DNA of 11,349 bases from Oscillospiraceae bacterium (GTDB lineage Bacteria; Bacillota; Clostridia; Oscillospirales; Ruminococcaceae), in assembly GCA_017396055.1 (NCBI GenBank), contig JAFQND010000301.1:1-11349 (forward strand). The letters are read 5' to 3'. The position numbers and the translations under genes are program-made. Positions within the stretch are counted from its first letter, which is position 1. Each line of letters begins with the position of its first letter. Shown here piece after piece: positions 599 through 5,997 of the stretch. Under the pieces are notes generated by a model that searched no databases, was not told where the DNA came from, and saw only the letters and a program-made list of their open reading frames with translations.

Positions 599-1231
599 TC
601 AGCAGCAGGGGTTTTTGGTGATGAGATTGGCAGCTTTTGTGTCGAACGAGGGGTTGAAGGCAAAGAAATTCTTCGCGCAGACCTTATCCTGTGCGATGCG
701 CAGCGCTTCACCGAAACGCTGATAATGGACGATCTCGCGCTGACGAAGGAAACGGATAGCGTCTTTTACGTCGGGATCATCCACCAGGCGGAGGATATTG
801 TCATAGCTGAGTCTTGCCTTCTGTTCGGCGGCAAGGTCTTCGTTCAGGTCGGCAAAAATATCACCGGTGGAAGCGAGGGTTTCGGCACTGAAAGCTGCCC
901 CGGAAGCGGCCTGCGGCCAGATGCCGGCGGTGTGATCGACAAAATAGGCATCGAATCCTTTTCGTTTGATCTCTTCGGGGGTAAGATTACGGGTCAGCTG
1001 ATAGAGGATCGCCGAGATCATCTCCACATGGGCAAGTTCTTCGGTGCCGACGTCGGTAAGGATTCCGGTCACTTCGCCGTATGGCATGGCAAAACGCTGG
1101 CTGAGATAACGGGTGGCTGCGCCCAGTTCGCCGTGGGGACCTCCCAGCTGGCTCATGATGACCGATGCGGCCTGAGGGTCGGGGCGTTTTACCTTGACGG
1201 GATGGATCAGTTTTTTCTCATAACTCCACAT
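599..1231 (-). CDS. cotJC: Spore coat protein CotJC, manganese-catalase family
   Basis: This 210-residue protein has the N-terminus typical of CotJC (MWSYEKKL) and the ferritin-like four-helix layout of manganese catalases. Likely dinuclear metal ligands are visible: Glu35 in GGPHGELG, Glu65 and His68 in GTEELAH, Glu136 in AAEQKAR and Glu166/His169 in REIVHY. The order and spacing follow known Mn-catalases. In Bacillus the protein is made in the mother cell and built into the inner spore coat; a peroxide-removing role is inferred from the fold. It is the last gene of the cotJA-cotJB-cotJC operon and begins 3 bases after the cotJB stop. Its ribosome binding site GGTGGAGGG lies inside the cotJB end. 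The protein ends in a Cys-Cys pair, which could be cross-linked in the coat, but that is speculation. Confidence 0.95.
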   Translation of the reverse strand: MWSYEKKLIHPVKVKRPDPQAASVIMSQLGGPHGELGAATRYLSQRFAMPYGEVTGILTDVGTEELAHVEMISAILYQLTRNLTPEEIKRKGFDAYFVDHTAGIWPQAASGAAFSAETLASTGDIFADLNEDLAAEQKARLSYDNILRLVDDPDVKDAIRFLRQREIVHYQRFGEALRIAQDKVCAKNFFAFNPSFDTKAANLITKNPCC

Positions 1232-1234
1232 AGC

Positions 1235-1483
1235 TTAACCCTCCACCTGCCAGGGCCAGGGGGAATCGACCCACGCCCAGCGCATCTGACCGTTTTCTTT
1301 ACGGATATCGGGACAGGCTTTTTCCCAGCGTGCCGTCAGTTCTTCCAGCTTTTCCTTCTGACAGAGATAGTATTCCATCGCTTCACAGTCACAGGGATGG
1401 GTATCCAGAAAGAGTTTTGTTTCGATCAGGGCAAATTTCACCGCCTGGATCTCCCGAAGAAGGGACTGCAGATTATTTTCCAT
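1235..1483 (-). CDS. cotJB: Spore coat protein CotJB
   Basis: This 82-residue protein carries the CotJB signature: an N-terminal helix (LLREIQAVKFALIE), then LFLDTHPCDCEA around residues 24-35, and a C-terminal tryptophan-rich segment (WVDSPWPWQ). Size and order match the family. The open frame extends upstream to 1594, but that part lies inside cotJA and shows no CotJB similarity, so I take the ATG at 1481-1483. It has an unusual G-rich ribosome binding site (AAAGGGGG, 1493-1500) about 9 bases upstream. The gene overlaps the end of cotJA by 11 bases, so translation is probably coupled. It is a coat component of the developing spore, with no enzymatic role known. Confidence 0.93.
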   Translation of the reverse strand: MENNLQSLLREIQAVKFALIETKLFLDTHPCDCEAMEYYLCQKEKLEELTARWEKACPDIRKENGQMRWAWVDSPWPWQVEG

Positions 1484-1750: not shown

Positions 1751-1779
1751 TGCAACGAAAAGGAGCGCTCAGGCGTATT
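1751..1779 (+). promoter_or_regulatory. ECF-type promoter for the lipoprotein gene (copy 1 of 3)
   Basis: TGCAAC (1751-1756), a 17-base spacer and CGTATT (1774-1779) form a -35/-10 pair like those of ECF sigma factors, which favour AAC in the -35 and CGT in the -10. The same pair with the same 17-base spacing occurs before the ECF sigma operon and before the LRR protein gene. A transcript starting near 1786 would carry the ribosome binding site at 1802-1809 and reach the GTG start at 1816 after about 30 bases. I see no good SigA promoter for this gene. Confidence 0.68.
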
Positions 1780-1815
1780 CAGCATAGAGAATATTATTTC
1801 CGGGAGGTGTTTTTC

Positions 1816-2580
1816 GTGAAGAAATGGCTGAAAATACTGGCAGGAGGATGCTGCGCACTGATCCTTGCAGCCTGCGGGATACCAAAGGCGGCGGCAACTG
1901 CCAATGTGACCATCATCGAAAATAACGGCAGCAGTCTTCTGGTGGTTGTCGACGGTCAGGGAGCGGGCAGTGCGGCGACAGTCGGAACAGGTTGTCCCAT
2001 CTATGACGAGAAGGGAAAAGAATTTCCTGCCGATGGGCTGAAGCCCGGTATGCAGCTGGAAGTCGGTTTTGACGGTTCGGTCATGGAGACCTATCCCGCA
2101 CATTTTGGCGGGTGTGAATATCTGAAACTGACCGGTACCGAAACGGATATCACGGCGATCGTCGCCGAACTGGAGGAGATGCTGCCAAAGGCAGAGCCTG
2201 ATCCCATGCCGGTTTTACAGGTGGAATGTGCGGGGAAACAGGTTACCTCCTGTCTCAATGCACCGAGGGGCTCCTCCTCGTGGGTAAACGGTGACGAGGC
2301 GATGCTGATGGATTCGCCCCATCCGCTGCAGTGGTCGGAAGAACGGCTGCAGGCGGTATCGGTGCCGGAAGGCTGCAAAAAGATGCGGTTCATCTTGTCG
2401 AAGGAACCGGAAAGCCTGACGGTACGTAGGTGGGACCTTTCGGACGCGGGCGATACTTCGGCAGAGGAAGAACTGTTCACTCCCGATGAAAAAGGAATGC
2501 TTTCACTGAAAGCCGGTATCTATGAGGTTGAGTCGGTTTATGCGGAAGGTGCGCTCACCTGGGTGTTTACCGTAAAATAA
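1816..2580 (+). CDS. Secreted lipoprotein, two-domain, function unknown
   Basis: This 254-residue protein has a classic lipoprotein signal: two lysines, a hydrophobic stretch and the lipobox LAAC with Cys20. The mature protein would be anchored outside the membrane. Residues 28-110 look like a small beta domain (ETYPAHFGG at 91-99), reminiscent of short OB-like domains in YobA/DUF3221-type lipoproteins, though that link is tentative. Residues 130-254 are a second beta-rich, possibly Ig-like domain ending in YAEGALTWVFTVK. The open frame starts at 1600, but the GTG at 1816-1818 has GGAGG (1803-1807) at 8 bases and begins the signal peptide, so I use it. The gene is preceded by an ECF-type promoter and is convergent with the anti-sigma gene, sharing its terminator. 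It is probably part of the envelope-stress regulon; its biochemical role is not recognisable. Confidence 0.8.
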   Translation: MKKWLKILAGGCCALILAACGIPKAAATANVTIIENNGSSLLVVVDGQGAGSAATVGTGCPIYDEKGKEFPADGLKPGMQLEVGFDGSVMETYPAHFGGCEYLKLTGTETDITAIVAELEEMLPKAEPDPMPVLQVECAGKQVTSCLNAPRGSSSWVNGDEAMLMDSPHPLQWSEERLQAVSVPEGCKKMRFILSKEPESLTVRRWDLSDAGDTSAEEELFTPDEKGMLSLKAGIYEVESVYAEGALTWVFTVK

Positions 2581-2608
2581 AAAACAGGAGGTCAAAGCCT
2601 CCTGTTTT
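2581..2608. terminator. Bidirectional terminator between lipoprotein and anti-sigma genes
   Basis: AAAACAGGAGG (2581-2591) pairs perfectly with CCTCCTGTTTT (2598-2608) around a 6-base loop. A T-run follows on the plus side, and TTTTATTTTAC follows on the minus side. The lipoprotein stop ends at 2580 and the anti-sigma stop begins at 2612, so it fits tightly between the convergent genes and can serve both. Confidence 0.92.
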
Positions 2609-2611
2609 CTG

Positions 2612-3415
2612 TTATCCGATGATTTCGATCAGAGCGTCCATATCGGTCCCGGGTTCGGCAAAGAGACTGAAGGTCATGCCGTCCCGTTTCCAGAGGGCAA
2701 GGGAGAAGGTGTTTCCGTCGCCGCTGAACTCCACAGGGAAAGAAGTATCGCAGTCATCCAGCTGTGCGACCTCGGTATATTTGCGGCTGGTATAGATGCC
2801 GCTGACATCGGCATCGCCCAGGGCGGTACGGTAGGTATAATCCACGCCGTCCTGCTCCCAGCAGAGCTGCAGCACTTCACCGCCGATGACGGTCACATCA
2901 CCGTTGATAGCCTCGACAGGAACGACGGGCATAAACTCCAGCACGGGCAGCGCGTCTTCCAGGTATTTGTATTTTACCACGGGATTGGCGATCAGTACGT
3001 CCGGGGTATCTTCGGTGGGTTCTGCGGCAGGGATATCGTCGGTATCCGGCTCGGATTTCATATCCGCTTTGGCAGAACCGTCGGCGGCTTCTTCCATGGC
3101 GGTTTCTCCGGCACTGAAGGAATACGCTTCGCTTTCGATCGAATCTTCCAGCACATCAAAAGCACCCTCAGCCGGCGCGGCGGTTTTGTTCGCTCCGTTC
3201 ATTCCCGCATCCATGGCGGCTTCCGGCGCGGCATCCAATGTCTGAAGTCCCACATATCCCACTGTACAGAGCAGTGCGAAACATGCCGCAGCACCGCAGG
3301 CTGTTCTGACCCATCCATAACGGTTTTTGGGTTTTGCGGTTTTTGCCAGTATTCTTGTTCTCATGTGATCGGATACGGCGATCTGATCCATGGCCTGTTT
3401 ATATGCTTTCTTCAA
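2612..3415 (-). CDS. Membrane anti-sigma factor partner of the ECF sigma
   Basis: This protein of about 267 residues has a short cytoplasmic head (1-35, basic near the membrane), one transmembrane segment (about 37-60), a long acidic Ala/Glu/Asp-rich extracellular linker (about 62-140) and a C-terminal beta-rich domain (about 145-267). The last part resembles DUF4367-like sensor ends of other Firmicute anti-sigma factors (LFAEPGTDMDALIEII). The role follows from topology and from its place directly after the ECF sigma gene, which it overlaps by 17 bases: the head should hold the sigma at the membrane until a signal frees it. No ZAS zinc motif (HxxxCxxC) is present, so the binding domain is of another type. 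The start is taken as the TTG at 3413-3415, with AAAGGAG 9 bases upstream. A TTG at 3421 is too close, and an ATG ten codons downstream remains possible. Confidence 0.82.
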   Translation of the reverse strand: MKKAYKQAMDQIAVSDHMRTRILAKTAKPKNRYGWVRTACGAAACFALLCTVGYVGLQTLDAAPEAAMDAGMNGANKTAAPAEGAFDVLEDSIESEAYSFSAGETAMEEAADGSAKADMKSEPDTDDIPAAEPTEDTPDVLIANPVVKYKYLEDALPVLEFMPVVPVEAINGDVTVIGGEVLQLCWEQDGVDYTYRTALGDADVSGIYTSRKYTEVAQLDDCDTSFPVEFSGDGNTFSLALWKRDGMTFSLFAEPGTDMDALIEIIG

Positions 3416-3908
3416 GATCAACCGCTCCTTTCAGTTTTTCTTTTAATATCGCTCTTGCGCGGAACATCAGCGAACGGACAGTGGATTCCTTTTTACCCAG
3501 AAGGGCGGCTATCTGTCCGACACTGTAATCCTCATAATAAAACAGATGGATGACCTCCCGATATTTGTCCGGAAGCGCCATAACAGCATCCAGAACAATG
3601 TTTCCCTCCAGCCAGTTTTCCTCTGCCGCGGCGGCATCGGTCTCTTCCAGCTCTTTGTGCCGTCTCCAGGGGGAACGGAGCCGGCTGCGGCAGATATTGA
3701 CGGTGACCCGGATAAGCCAGGCTTTGCGGTGCTCTTCGCTTTCAAAAGCCGGAGCCTTTTCCAGAACTTTGACGAGAACATCCTGCAGAACGTCTTCAGC
3801 GTCCGGGATGTTTTTCATACAGGAGAAAGCCAGCCGCAGGATCATATTGCCGTAACGGTCAAGAAGAACATCTGCTGTTTCATCGCGCGCCAATGAAACC
3901 TGATTCAA
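3399..3908 (-). CDS. ECF (sigma-70 family, group 4) RNA polymerase sigma factor
   Basis: This protein of about 169 residues contains only regions 2 and 4, as ECF sigmas do. Region 2 spans about 18-80, with the core-binding stretch DAEDVLQDVLVKVLE (36-50) and the -10 reading helix AWLIRVTVNICRSRLRS (63-79). A charged linker (about 81-105) follows. Region 4 spans about 112-160, with LPDKYREVIHLFYYEDYS and the helix-turn-helix IAALLGKKESTVRSLMFRAR. An in-frame ATG at 3924-3926 lies upstream, but its codons are themselves the Shine-Dalgarno (AAAGGAGG, 3916-3923). The TTG at 3906-3908, 7 bases after GGAGG, is therefore the likely start. The anti-sigma gene overlaps its end. Two promoters precede it, one SigA-like and one ECF-like that suggests autoregulation. 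Confidence 0.93.
   Translation of the reverse strand: MNQVSLARDETADVLLDRYGNMILRLAFSCMKNIPDAEDVLQDVLVKVLEKAPAFESEEHRKAWLIRVTVNICRSRLRSPWRRHKELEETDAAAAEENWLEGNIVLDAVMALPDKYREVIHLFYYEDYSVGQIAALLGKKESTVRSLMFRARAILKEKLKGAVDLEESI
3425..3431 (-). promoter_or_regulatory. Ribosome binding site that decides the anti-sigma start
   Basis: AAAGGAG lies inside the sigma gene end. Its GGAG core is 3 bases from the TTG at 3421 but 9 bases from the TTG at 3415, which favours the latter. No ATG is available at usable spacing. Confidence 0.6.
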
Positions 3909-3915
3909 TGTTCCC

Positions 3916-3923
3916 CCTCCTTT
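3916..3923 (-). promoter_or_regulatory. Ribosome binding site that decides the sigma-factor start
   Basis: AAAGGAGG on the minus strand is contained in the codons of the upstream ATG (3924-3926). It lies 7 bases before the TTG at 3906-3908, so translation should begin at TTG rather than ATG. Confidence 0.7.
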
Positions 3924-3930
3924 CATCTAT

Positions 3931-3959
3931 AATACTTTCGGGCGGCCCGAAAAGTTGCA
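3931..3959 (-). promoter_or_regulatory. ECF-type autoregulatory promoter of the sigma operon (copy 2 of 3)
   Basis: On the minus strand TGCAAC (3954-3959) is followed after 17 bases by AGTATT (3931-3936). The -35 is identical to the other two copies and the -10 shares GTAT. TTTCGC stands just before the -35; similar TTTCGCTG occurs a few bases before copy 3. A transcript would start near 3924, giving a very short leader that just includes the ribosome binding site. No SigA -35 fits this -10. Confidence 0.65.
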
Positions 3960-3984
3960 GCGAAAAAAGATTTTCTTCAGTCCG

Positions 3985-4013
3985 ATTGTAACATGAATTG
4001 GTTCCGGAATCAA
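3985..4013 (-). promoter_or_regulatory. SigA-type upstream promoter of the sigma operon
   Basis: TTGATT (4008-4013), a 17-base spacer and TACAAT (3985-3990) on the minus strand match the housekeeping consensus well (4 of 6 and 5 of 6). The predicted leader is about 70 bases. It could supply basal sigma and anti-sigma, with the proximal ECF promoter adding the induced level. Confidence 0.6.
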
Positions 4014-4047
4014 CGAAGCAGGAAAAAAATTCAAAATTTCGCTGGGA

Positions 4048-4076
4048 TGCAACTACTTTACCCCGTCGGGCGTATA
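4048..4076 (+). promoter_or_regulatory. ECF-type promoter of the LRR surface protein gene (copy 3 of 3)
   Basis: TGCAAC (4048-4053), a 17-base spacer and CGTATA (4071-4076) on the plus strand repeat the element found before the lipoprotein and sigma genes. The predicted transcript starts near 4083, about 73 bases before the ATG at 4156. It overlaps a SigA-like promoter offset by 9 bases. Confidence 0.62.
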
Positions 4077-4085
4077 TGATATAAT
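4057..4085 (+). promoter_or_regulatory. Possible overlapping SigA-type promoter of the LRR surface protein gene
   Basis: TTTACC (4057-4062), 17 bases and a perfect TATAAT (4080-4085) form an alternative housekeeping promoter that overlaps the ECF-type one. Either or both could be active; sequence alone does not separate them. Confidence 0.5.
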
Positions 4086-4155: not shown

Positions 4156-5997
4156 ATGACAAAAAGAATTCTGACAAAAGCTGCCGCGGTCGTGACTGCA
4201 ATGGCCGGTGCGGCTGTCTTCACTTTTTCAACATTTGCAGCTTACGGTTATACCAACGATGTTGTTCCCAGCGCGAAATTTGATGCCGATATCTATGATG
4301 TTCTTTTATATGAATTTGATATCGATGACAGCGGCGACTTAAGCGAGTATGAGCTGGCCTGCATCACCGAGCTGGACTTGTCCGAGATGGATCTGACCTC
4401 GCTGAGAGGACTTTCCTATCTGCCCAATCTGGCAAAGCTGAATGCGTCGTACAACAGACTTCGCAACCTGTCCACCCTGAAGGGGAATACAAATCTGCAG
4501 ATGCTGGACGTTTCGGAAAACAGTCTGACCACACTGGACGGTGTGGGTAAGCTGACAAAGCTGCAGCAGCTGACTGCAAACGGCAACAAGATCAAGAACC
4601 TTGGCGATATCGGTGATTGTTCGAGCCTTGTTTCTGCCAATCTGAACGACAATAAGATCTACAGTACCTCCGGTCTGGAAGACCTGGAAAAGATCACTTC
4701 CCTTTCTCTGGATGACAATACCCTTACATCTCTTGGCGCGCTTCCCGCGAGTCTGACGAGTTTTTCCGCTGTGGGCAATGAGCTGAGCGAACTGGGCGGC
4801 GTCAAAAAGCTGCAGAAGCTCACGTATCTGGATCTTTCGGACAACGGCATCGAGTCGCTGTCGGGAGTTCCCTCTTCGGTCAGGACACTTTATATGGTGA
4901 ACAATCAGATCAGCTCGCTCGCCGGTCTGGAGAATCTCAGCGGTGTATATGCCGACCTCAGCTGGAATCTGATCGCTCTTGACAGTTCGGCACAGCAGGC
5001 TATCCTCAAAAAGCTTTCTTCCGGCACTACGCTGGTCACCCTGCCGCAGGCAATGTCCGGCTGGCAGCTGCACGGAAAAGACTGGTACTGGTTCACCGAT
5101 GCGAACGGCAGCTATGCGACCGGTTCGATGACGATCAACGGCACCGCTTACTGGTTTGACGATTACGGCGTCTGGAACGGTACCAACACGGCACCTTCCA
5201 TACCTGCTCTTCCCGATGAGGGCGGAAATGATGCGCCCGAGCTTCCTTCCGGTTCCGAAGGTCCCACTCCCGTTCTGGGCGGTGATACACCCGGCGGCCC
5301 TTCGACGGATGACGGCTCCTCCATCAGCTGGACTGTAAAGGAAGACGGCAAATATTATCTGGACGCTGCCGGCAATATCATTGCGACCGGCTGGGTACAG
5401 GCAGATGAAGGGTACTATTTTGTCGACGAAAAGGGTAAAATGGTCACCGGCTGGCAGGAATGGAAGACCTCTCAGTATTACATGAACGAAAAAGGTCTGA
5501 TGGTCACCGGCTGGCAGACTGTCGACGGACAGACTTATTATTTCTATAACTGGGGCGGCAGAGCCCGCGGCTGGTTCCAGGTGGACGGCAAGTGGTACTA
5601 TGCCTATATGAACGGTGTGCTGTACAAAAACAGCTGGGCTTATGTCTCCGGTAAATGGTACTGGCTCAGAGCTGACGGCACTATGGTCGCCAACGGCTGG
5701 CAGCAGGTGGGCGGTCTGTGGTATTACTTCGGTTCGTCCGGCGCAATGGTCGCCAACGACTGGGTCACCTATGGAAACAGCAAATGCTGGCTTTCTTCCT
5801 CCGGCGCGATGCTGACCGGCTGGCAGAATATCAACGGCCAGACCTACTATCTCTCCAAGGCCACCGGCTGCCGTGTACAGGGACAGTGGGCGCGTATCGA
5901 CGGCAAGACCTATTATTTCAACGGAGAAGGTCATCTTCTCAGAAATACCACCATCGACGGCTATAAGGTCGGCGCAGATGGTGCCTGGATCGCATAA
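4156..5997 (+). CDS. Secreted surface protein: EF-hand loop, leucine-rich repeats, cell-wall-binding repeats
   Basis: This 613-residue protein has a signal peptide (about 1-28, cleavage near FAA/YGY). A perfect EF-hand-type calcium loop follows at 55-66 (DIDDSGDLSEYE). About nine to ten leucine-rich repeats of roughly 22 residues of the SDS22/internalin kind span 67-290. A first cell-wall-binding-like segment lies at 303-344, a Pro/Gly/Asp linker at 345-390, and nine CW_binding (choline-binding-type) repeats at 391-613 with tryptophans every 20-22 residues (W413 to W578). The C-terminal repeats should hold it non-covalently on wall polymers, and the LRR face would bind a protein or glycan; no ligand is evident. 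The start is ATG 4156, with AGGAGGAG (4144-4151) upstream; an in-frame ATG at 4123 would place this site inside the gene and spoil the signal peptide. It is divergent from the ECF sigma gene and has a matching ECF-type promoter. Confidence 0.9.
   Translation: MTKRILTKAAAVVTAMAGAAVFTFSTFAAYGYTNDVVPSAKFDADIYDVLLYEFDIDDSGDLSEYELACITELDLSEMDLTSLRGLSYLPNLAKLNASYNRLRNLSTLKGNTNLQMLDVSENSLTTLDGVGKLTKLQQLTANGNKIKNLGDIGDCSSLVSANLNDNKIYSTSGLEDLEKITSLSLDDNTLTSLGALPASLTSFSAVGNELSELGGVKKLQKLTYLDLSDNGIESLSGVPSSVRTLYMVNNQISSLAGLENLSGVYADLSWNLIALDSSAQQAILKKLSSGTTLVTLPQAMSGWQLHGKDWYWFTDANGSYATGSMTINGTAYWFDDYGVWNGTNTAPSIPALPDEGGNDAPELPSGSEGPTPVLGGDTPGGPSTDDGSSISWTVKEDGKYYLDAAGNIIATGWVQADEGYYFVDEKGKMVTGWQEWKTSQYYMNEKGLMVTGWQTVDGQTYYFYNWGGRARGWFQVDGKWYYAYMNGVLYKNSWAYVSGKWYWLRADGTMVANGWQQVGGLWYYFGSSGAMVANDWVTYGNSKCWLSSSGAMLTGWQNINGQTYYLSKATGCRVQGQWARIDGKTYYFNGEGHLLRNTTIDGYKVGADGAWIA
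4354..5025 (+). repeat. Leucine-rich repeat coding tract
   Basis: About nine to ten repeats of 20-22 codons encode the pattern LxxLxLxxNxLxxLxGLxxL within the surface protein. The conserved Asn positions (for example N100, N122, N144, N166, N188, N208, N230, N250) repeat at near-constant spacing. The tenth unit is degenerate and probably caps the solenoid. Confidence 0.85.
5326..5994 (+). repeat. CW_binding (choline-binding-type) repeat tract
   Basis: Nine units of 20-22 codons carry the TGW...YY or NGW...WYY pattern. At DNA level an 18-base identical stretch (ATGGTCACCGGCTGGCAG) occurs at 5440-5457 and 5500-5517, exactly 60 bases apart. ATGGTCGCCAACG occurs at 5683-5695 and 5746-5758, exactly 63 bases apart. 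These in-phase repeats could allow unit gain or loss by recombination. Confidence 0.85.

What the first reader, a model, noticed from the sequence alone, without database searches (positions are those of the whole stretch)
1751..4076. Three matching ECF promoters mark a local sigma-factor regulon
Seen: TGCAAC-N17-CGTATT at 1751-1779 (+, lipoprotein), TGCAAC-N17-AGTATT at 3931-3959 (-, sigma/anti-sigma operon) and TGCAAC-N17-CGTATA at 4048-4076 (+, LRR surface protein). The hexamer is identical and the spacing exactly 17 each time, while the spacers differ. The only other TGCAAC I noticed by eye is inside the sulfatase gene (10551) and lacks GTAT at that distance. Known: ECF sigmas of the SigM/SigW/SigX kind prefer AAC in the -35 and CGT in the -10, and usually transcribe their own operon. 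Inference: this sigma controls itself, a lipoprotein and an LRR/wall-binding protein, forming a compact envelope-response module whose signal is unknown.
Basis: partly seen in the sequence, partly recalled or inferred. Interest (0 to 1): 0.75.

Follow-up and report, generated by a model that had tools for sequence, protein, structure and literature searches.

The report
Sigma factor regulon for surface proteins
Three matching DNA switches next to a gut bacterium's stress-type sigma factor look real, and sister species carry the same switch, often elsewhere in the genome, in front of related surface lipoproteins, wall-binding proteins and a protease inhibitor.

Summary
In detail: TGCAAC-N15-19-NGTAT occurs three times in the window, at the stated places (0 of 200 shuffles reach three). 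The window's draft genome (1.9 Mb, 68% complete) holds four sites with spacing 17; three are these, the fourth lies inside a long frame. Thirteen other genomes of the genus (apparently Candidatus Faecivivens) support the regulatory reading. The sigma gene's own site is present in all 12 that have an ortholog. A lipoprotein site is present in 10 of 10 relatives with a homolog (two weak), on other contigs than the sigma gene in the 9 that show both. The LRR site is weaker: strict in 2 of 12 relatives, with a changed -10 in 6 more, cut in one, absent in three; in the window it overlaps a sigma-A-like promoter found in 13 of 13 homologs. Of 76 distinct genus sites 33 precede signal-sequence genes, against 0 of 17 control sites. 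Targets include choline-binding proteins, a lipoprotein serpin and an ABC transporter. So 'sigma controls itself and a lipoprotein' is well supported, the LRR protein likely; 'local module' is not: in relatives the regulon is scattered. The signal is unknown. New member of a known kind.

The parts
1751..1779 (+). ECF-type promoter TGCAAC-N17-CGTATT of the lipoprotein gene (no T-tract after the -35)
   Evidence: a [TC]GCAAC-N17-NGT site before homologs in 10 of 10 relatives
1816..2580 (+). lipoprotein (GTG start, lipobox LAAC), family of unknown function; weak DUF3221 resemblance below cut-off
   Evidence: E 0.044; 14 invariant columns in 9 rows, one of them the weak G003 homolog
2612..3421 (-). 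putative anti-sigma factor: short cytoplasmic head, one membrane helix, variable linker, C-terminal beta domain outside (topology inferred)
   Evidence: overlaps the sigma gene by 23 nt; 12-row alignment; model of mean pLDDT 68.8 with residues about 145-268 confident; Pfam only DUF4367 at E 0.15
3399..3908 (-). ECF sigma factor (likely TTG start at 3908; ribosome-binding site about 3913-3923)
   Evidence: Sigma70_r2 and Sigma70_r4_2 above cut-off; 12 of 13 other genus genomes hold a 60-72% ortholog
3931..3959 (-). autoregulatory ECF-type promoter TGCAACTTTT-N13-AGTATT
   Evidence: same place in 12 of 12 orthologs in relatives (about 50 nt before the likely start)
3985..4013 (-). sigma-A-like promoter TTGATT-N17-TACAAT with TG, upstream of the ECF site: possible basal expression of the sigma operon
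   Evidence: 9 of 12 matches; 6 such sites in the region scanned against 3.8 in shuffles; promoters scoring 10 or more on my score in 7 of 12 testable genomes incl. the window
4048..4076 (+). ECF-type promoter TGCAAC-N17-CGTATA of the LRR gene, overlapping a sigma-A-like promoter
   Evidence: same composite arrangement in G004, where the LRR gene is not on the sigma contig
4057..4085 (+). sigma-A-like promoter TTTACC-N17-TATAAT with TG before the -10
   Evidence: 10 of 12 matches; TTTACC-N17-TAYAMT in 13 of 13 LRR homologs
4156..5997 (+). secreted LRR protein with C-terminal choline-binding (wall-binding) repeats
   Evidence: LRR_4, Choline_bind_1/2/3 above cut-off

Best explanation
An ECF sigma factor with a membrane-bound partner anti-sigma (overlapping genes, 3908-2612) recognises [T/C]GCAAC-HTTTT-N12-NGT[A/T/G]TT. 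A signal acting on the outer domain of the anti-sigma releases the sigma, which then transcribes its own operon and a set of genes mostly for proteins outside the membrane: in the window a lipoprotein and an LRR/choline-binding wall protein; in sister species also other choline-binding proteins, a lipoprotein serpin, further lipoproteins and an ABC transporter ATPase. The LRR gene, and perhaps the sigma operon, also has a sigma-A-like promoter for basal expression. Shown by sequence comparison: the sites, their conservation and the nature of the genes behind them. Inferred: that this sigma binds them, that the anti-sigma holds it, and the signal.
For: Three exact sites, none of 200 shuffles reaching three. 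Autoregulatory site in 13 of 13 orthologs incl. the window, 11 TGCAAC and 2 CGCAAC. Genus-wide 81 matches of TGCAAC-N17-NGTDTT against 18 for the reversed pattern. A T-tract that was not part of that pattern: TTT at positions 8-10 in 55 of 76 distinct sites. 33 of 76 distinct sites precede a signal-sequence gene within 5-300 nt, against 0 of 17 distinct control sites (Fisher p 0.0004); 56 of 76 against 7 of 17 have any gene with a ribosome-binding site there. Lipoprotein homologs: site in 10 of 10 relatives. Family level: refined motif 15 matches in the 3 genus genomes sampled (control 0) but 12 in the 145 others (control 5), and only those 3 have a sigma match with E below 1e-60; three others at 1e-41 to 1e-43 have no site.
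Against: G001 has five TTT-type sites but no detected ortholog of the sigma (best match 38%; assembly 69% complete). One paralogous ECF in G011 has TGCAAC-TTTT-N13-CGTC before it, so the -35 is shared by at least one paralog. Among 72 more distant sigma homologs (40-58%) 19 also show [TC]GCAAC-NTTT upstream (read), so the -35 belongs to a wider clade. The two non-self window sites lack the T-tract. 43 of 76 distinct sites have no signal-sequence gene by my rule; part are the sigma operon, the ABC gene or wrongly set starts, part are plainly inside genes. For the LRR gene only 3 of 13 homologs have a strict -10; G003 and G007 have the gene divergent from the sigma as in the window but no ECF site. 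No expression data.
Confidence: 0.77

Rival explanations
1. The LRR gene is transcribed from the conserved sigma-A-like promoter alone, and the TGCAAC/CGTATA at 4048 is a by-product or a remnant. (Odds raised from 0.27 to 0.30 on recount of the -10 forms.)
For: TTTACC-N17-TAYAMT is present in 13 of 13 LRR homologs, while a strict ECF-type site is present in 3 of 13 (window, G004, G010), a looser one in 6, none in G002, G003, G007; at 4057-4085 the sigma-A match is 10 of 12 with TG.
Against: G004 keeps TGCAAC and GTATA at the same distance although the spacer between differs, on another contig than the sigma; seven further relatives have a separate TGCAAC site 57-114 nt above the sigma-A-like promoter. 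Of these seven, G010 is strict; G008, G009 and G011 have GTAC at spacing 17; G005 and G006 GTAC at spacing 16; G013 ATAC at spacing 16.
Confidence: 0.3
2. The sites are real ECF promoters but are served by a paralogous ECF sigma, or by several ECF sigmas together.
For: Each genome has several related sigma genes (4 to 14 matches per genome); one paralog in G011 has a TGCAACTTTT-type site before it; G001 has sites without a detected ortholog.
Against: Of 23 loci of other sigma genes scanned (two are the same gene, and some may not be ECF) 3 hold a [TC]GCAAC-N16-18-NGT match and only the G011 one lies just before the gene, against 13 of 13 for this sigma; ECF sigmas commonly transcribe their own operon (recalled).
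Confidence: 0.13
3. The three matches are coincidence.
For: Short motif; -10 hexamers differ in the first and the last base.
Against: shuffles; conservation in relatives; control pattern.
Confidence: 0.01

Closest known systems
Bacillus subtilis sigma-W / RsiW and related envelope-stress ECF systems (SigM, SigV, SigX)
   Same: Two-domain ECF sigma, membrane anti-sigma next to it (recalled for Bacillus), AAC-type -35 and CGTA-type -10 (SigW TGAAAC-N16,17-CGTA, passage in PMC2375139); SigW (5wuq) is the best PDB match by sequence.
   Different: The -35 is TGCAAC, mostly with a T-tract; curated SigW, SigV and SigM models fall far below their cut-offs; none of the 12 anti-sigma rows has the Hx3Cx2C zinc motif (motif as given in passages of PMC7406223; checked).
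Streptomyces coelicolor sigma-E regulon
   Same: ECF regulon in which lipoproteins and wall proteins are frequent, target promoters compared across a genus (passages of PMC6767563).
   Different: Sigma-E transcription depends on a two-component system and its own promoter is not a sigma-E target; listed targets mostly end in CGTCT-like -10.
[quoted passage not shown]
   Same: A bacterial serpin under an inducible sensing system (passages of PMC8012564).
   Different: Here the serpin in sister species has an ECF-type promoter instead; its inducer is unknown.

Membership tests
ECF sigma factor | sigma region 2 and region 4 only, short protein | tested here: met
   PF04542 47.5 bits and PF08281 54 bits, both above cut-off, 170-175 aa
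ECF sigma factor | anti-sigma encoded next to it, membrane-spanning | tested here: inconclusive
   adjacent overlapping gene with one hydrophobic stretch in the rows of the 12-row alignment, but no anti-sigma family reached its cut-off and binding is not testable
ECF sigma factor | own promoter of the class it recognises | tested here: met
   13 of 13 orthologs incl. the window; recognition itself not testable
SigW / SigM / SigV (Bacillus) | curated family score | tested here: not met
   SigV 74.8 of 190, SigW 68.9 of 209, SigM 75.5 of 190 bits
SigW / SigM / SigV (Bacillus) | -35 TGAAAC (SigW; taken for the group from recall) | tested here: not met
   TGCAAC or CGCAAC in all 13 autoregulatory sites
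zinc-type class I anti-sigma domain | Hx3Cx2C motif | tested here: not met
   absent from all 12 rows of A1
DUF4367 domain | Pfam gathering score | tested here: inconclusive
   13 of 22.1 bits, E 0.15, 1 of 12 members
sigma-dependent regulon | loss of transcription without the sigma | not testable with these tools
   no expression data

The most novel reading that the evidence does not exclude
The regulon is a protease-defence and host-contact programme: an outside protease cuts the exposed linker or beta domain of the anti-sigma, the sigma is released and switches on a lipoprotein serpin together with LRR and choline-binding wall proteins. The serpin as an ECF target in gut Clostridia is the new element; the trigger is speculation.
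Probability: 0.13. Interest if true: 0.68.

Novelty: new member of a known kind. Interest (0 to 1): 0.5.

Why it matters
It gives a concrete promoter consensus and a target list for an ECF sigma of gut Clostridia known mainly from metagenome assemblies, tying surface LRR/choline-binding proteins, a lipoprotein family of unknown function and a serpin to one switch. It makes the signal question testable, and shows that a three-site local pattern can be the visible corner of a wider regulon.

Tried and rejected
Perfect inverted repeat TTTCGGGC-G-GCCCGAAA inside the spacer of the autoregulatory site (3936-3952): considered as an operator, but absent from the orthologous sites and not unusual as a fold (z -1.47); rejected.

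Fold of the anti-sigma outer domain: confident beta domain, but no PDB match better than E 0.15; no function drawn from it.

Other own-genome sites: a looser pattern gave 7 matches against 2 for the control; besides the three, four remain, each inside a frame of 194 to 717 codons. The one-mismatch search gave 6 against 1; two are new: one inside an 885-codon frame, one (C92, TGAAAC-N17-CGTATT) outside any frame longer than 106 codons, which I did not follow.

Papers: no description of this regulon turned up in the listings (held open-access library only; listings, not full texts). PMC7438776 (passages) says that consensus sequences for the three C. difficile ECF sigma factors remain to be identified.

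Limits: the signal-sequence rule is home-made and misses genes whose start it sets wrongly; the 76 sites are the 81 after identical 36-mers were merged (rechecked, where 12 later sites from other genera bring the count to 88), and the 17 control sites are the 18 merged likewise. In one search I grouped 54 of the 85 sites (a slightly looser pattern) into six gene families; 31 were left out, among them a paralogous sigma gene of G003, a family of two secreted proteins, a second copy of the 4048 site and sites inside genes; in the 54, T stands at position 8 in 52, 9 in 51, 10 in 52. The -10 pattern for the LRR gene was loosened after reading. Two lipoprotein homologs are weak (G003 E 6.7e-4, G001 E 1.5e-5), and a second weak G007 homolog (C26) has no such site in its locus.
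Full report
Observation. Shuffled sequence gives 0.07 such sites on average and never three in 200 tries. The window is contig C215 of a draft genome of 1.9 Mb, 351 contigs, 68% complete; that genome holds four matches of TGCAAC-N17-NGTAT, three of them here, none for the reversed pattern, and the fourth lies inside a long frame.

Genes. The minus strand carries an ECF sigma factor (sigma regions 2 and 4 above cut-off) and, overlapping it, a protein with a short head, one hydrophobic helix and a confident beta domain, the expected shape of an anti-sigma; no curated family claims it. Divergent to it lies a secreted LRR protein with choline-binding repeats. Beyond the anti-sigma gene a lipoprotein is read on the plus strand; it has no family above cut-off.

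Relatives. The search found 14 genomes of the genus, own included. Twelve of the 13 others have an ortholog of the sigma with 60-72% identity; the exception, G001, is 69% complete. All 12 carry [TC]GCAAC-N17-NGT at the same place before the gene, as the window does. This is the strongest evidence that the sigma serves this motif. The -35 with T-tract is older than the genus: 19 of 72 more distant homologs show it too (read).

Genus-wide sites. TGCAAC-N17-NGTDTT has 81 matches in the 14 genomes against 18 for the reversed control. I read the genes behind 76 distinct sites and 17 distinct control sites with one script: 33 of 76 have a signal-sequence gene within 5-300 nt, 0 of 17 in the control; among the 55 sites with TTT after TGCAAC 30 do, among the 21 others 3. 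The T-tract was not part of the pattern and emerged from it. Recurrent targets are the sigma operon, the lipoprotein family of the window, choline-binding proteins (some with LRR, one with a CAP domain), a lipoprotein serpin, an ABC transporter ATPase and other lipoproteins (Pfam on 10 representatives).

Each window site in turn. Sigma: above. Lipoprotein: homologs in 10 other genomes; a site lies before all ten: nine (G001 with CGCAAC; G001 and G003 weak homologs) and G007 about 75 nt before a GTG start. In the window and in G004 this site lacks the T-tract. LRR gene: among 13 homologs including the window, TTTACC-N17-TAYAMT, a sigma-A-like promoter, stands before all 13, and a TGCAAC site before 9; G012 is cut by a contig end where the site would be, G002, G003 and G007 have none. 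Of the nine, only the window, G004 and G010 have a strict -10; G008, G009 and G011 read GTAC at spacing 17, G005 and G006 GTAC at spacing 16, G013 ATAC at spacing 16. In the window and G004 the two promoters overlap; in G004 the LRR gene is on another contig than the sigma. G003 and G007 have the LRR gene divergent from the sigma as in the window, yet without an ECF site. So this third target is likely but less sure.

Local or not. The enlarged use of the motif is a genus matter: 15 refined matches in the three genus genomes of a 148-genome family sample (control 0) against 12 in the other 145 (control 5), and only those three have a close sigma match. In relatives the sites are scattered over contigs. 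In the window's genome only the three are seen, but it is broken into 351 contigs; its serpin gene begins at a contig end, so the place of a site is missing. Of the seven serpin genes over the cut-off in the genus, five have the site, one (G010) has none in the 350 nt read, and the own one cannot be judged.

Mechanism. Most likely the anti-sigma holds the sigma at the membrane; an outside signal frees it; it then drives its own operon and the surface-protein genes. A sigma-A-like promoter above the autoregulatory site, with counterparts scoring 10 or more in 7 of 12 testable genomes including the window, could supply basal sigma. Binding, release and signal are inferred.

What is known. It works like the envelope-stress ECF systems of Bacillus (SigW consensus TGAAAC-N16,17-CGTA, passage of PMC2375139), but fails the curated models of SigW, SigM and SigV and has its own -35. 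[quoted passage not shown] an ECF-type promoter before a serpin was not met in the listings, whose papers I did not open except PMC8012564.

Noticed in passing
L138, L133, L096, L146, L151 (relatives); G000 contig C200 (L263): A lipoprotein serpin gene (PF00079) follows the same ECF-type site in five genus members; the window's own genome has a serpin gene cut by a contig end at its start.
   Followed up: partly
window 4057-4085 and LRR homologs L298-L310: TTTACC is invariant as the -35 of the sigma-A-like promoter in 13 of 13 LRR homologs, perhaps more than such a promoter alone would need.
   Followed up: partly
window 3936-3952: Perfect 8+8 inverted repeat in the spacer of the autoregulatory promoter, not kept in relatives.
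   Followed up: yes
window 599-1483, minus strand: A manganese-catalase-like gene (PF05067) and a CotJB gene (PF12652), resembling a spore-coat operon, divergent from the lipoprotein gene.
   Followed up: no
L031 (G011 contig C19): A paralogous ECF sigma has TGCAACTTTT-N13-CGTC before it: same -35, other -10, a hint at overlapping regulons.
   Followed up: no
L185-L189 and other loci: Clostridium relatives of the sigma (51-56%) carry TGCAACATTT-type sites 50-62 nt before the matched start, so the -35 is older than the genus.
   Followed up: partly
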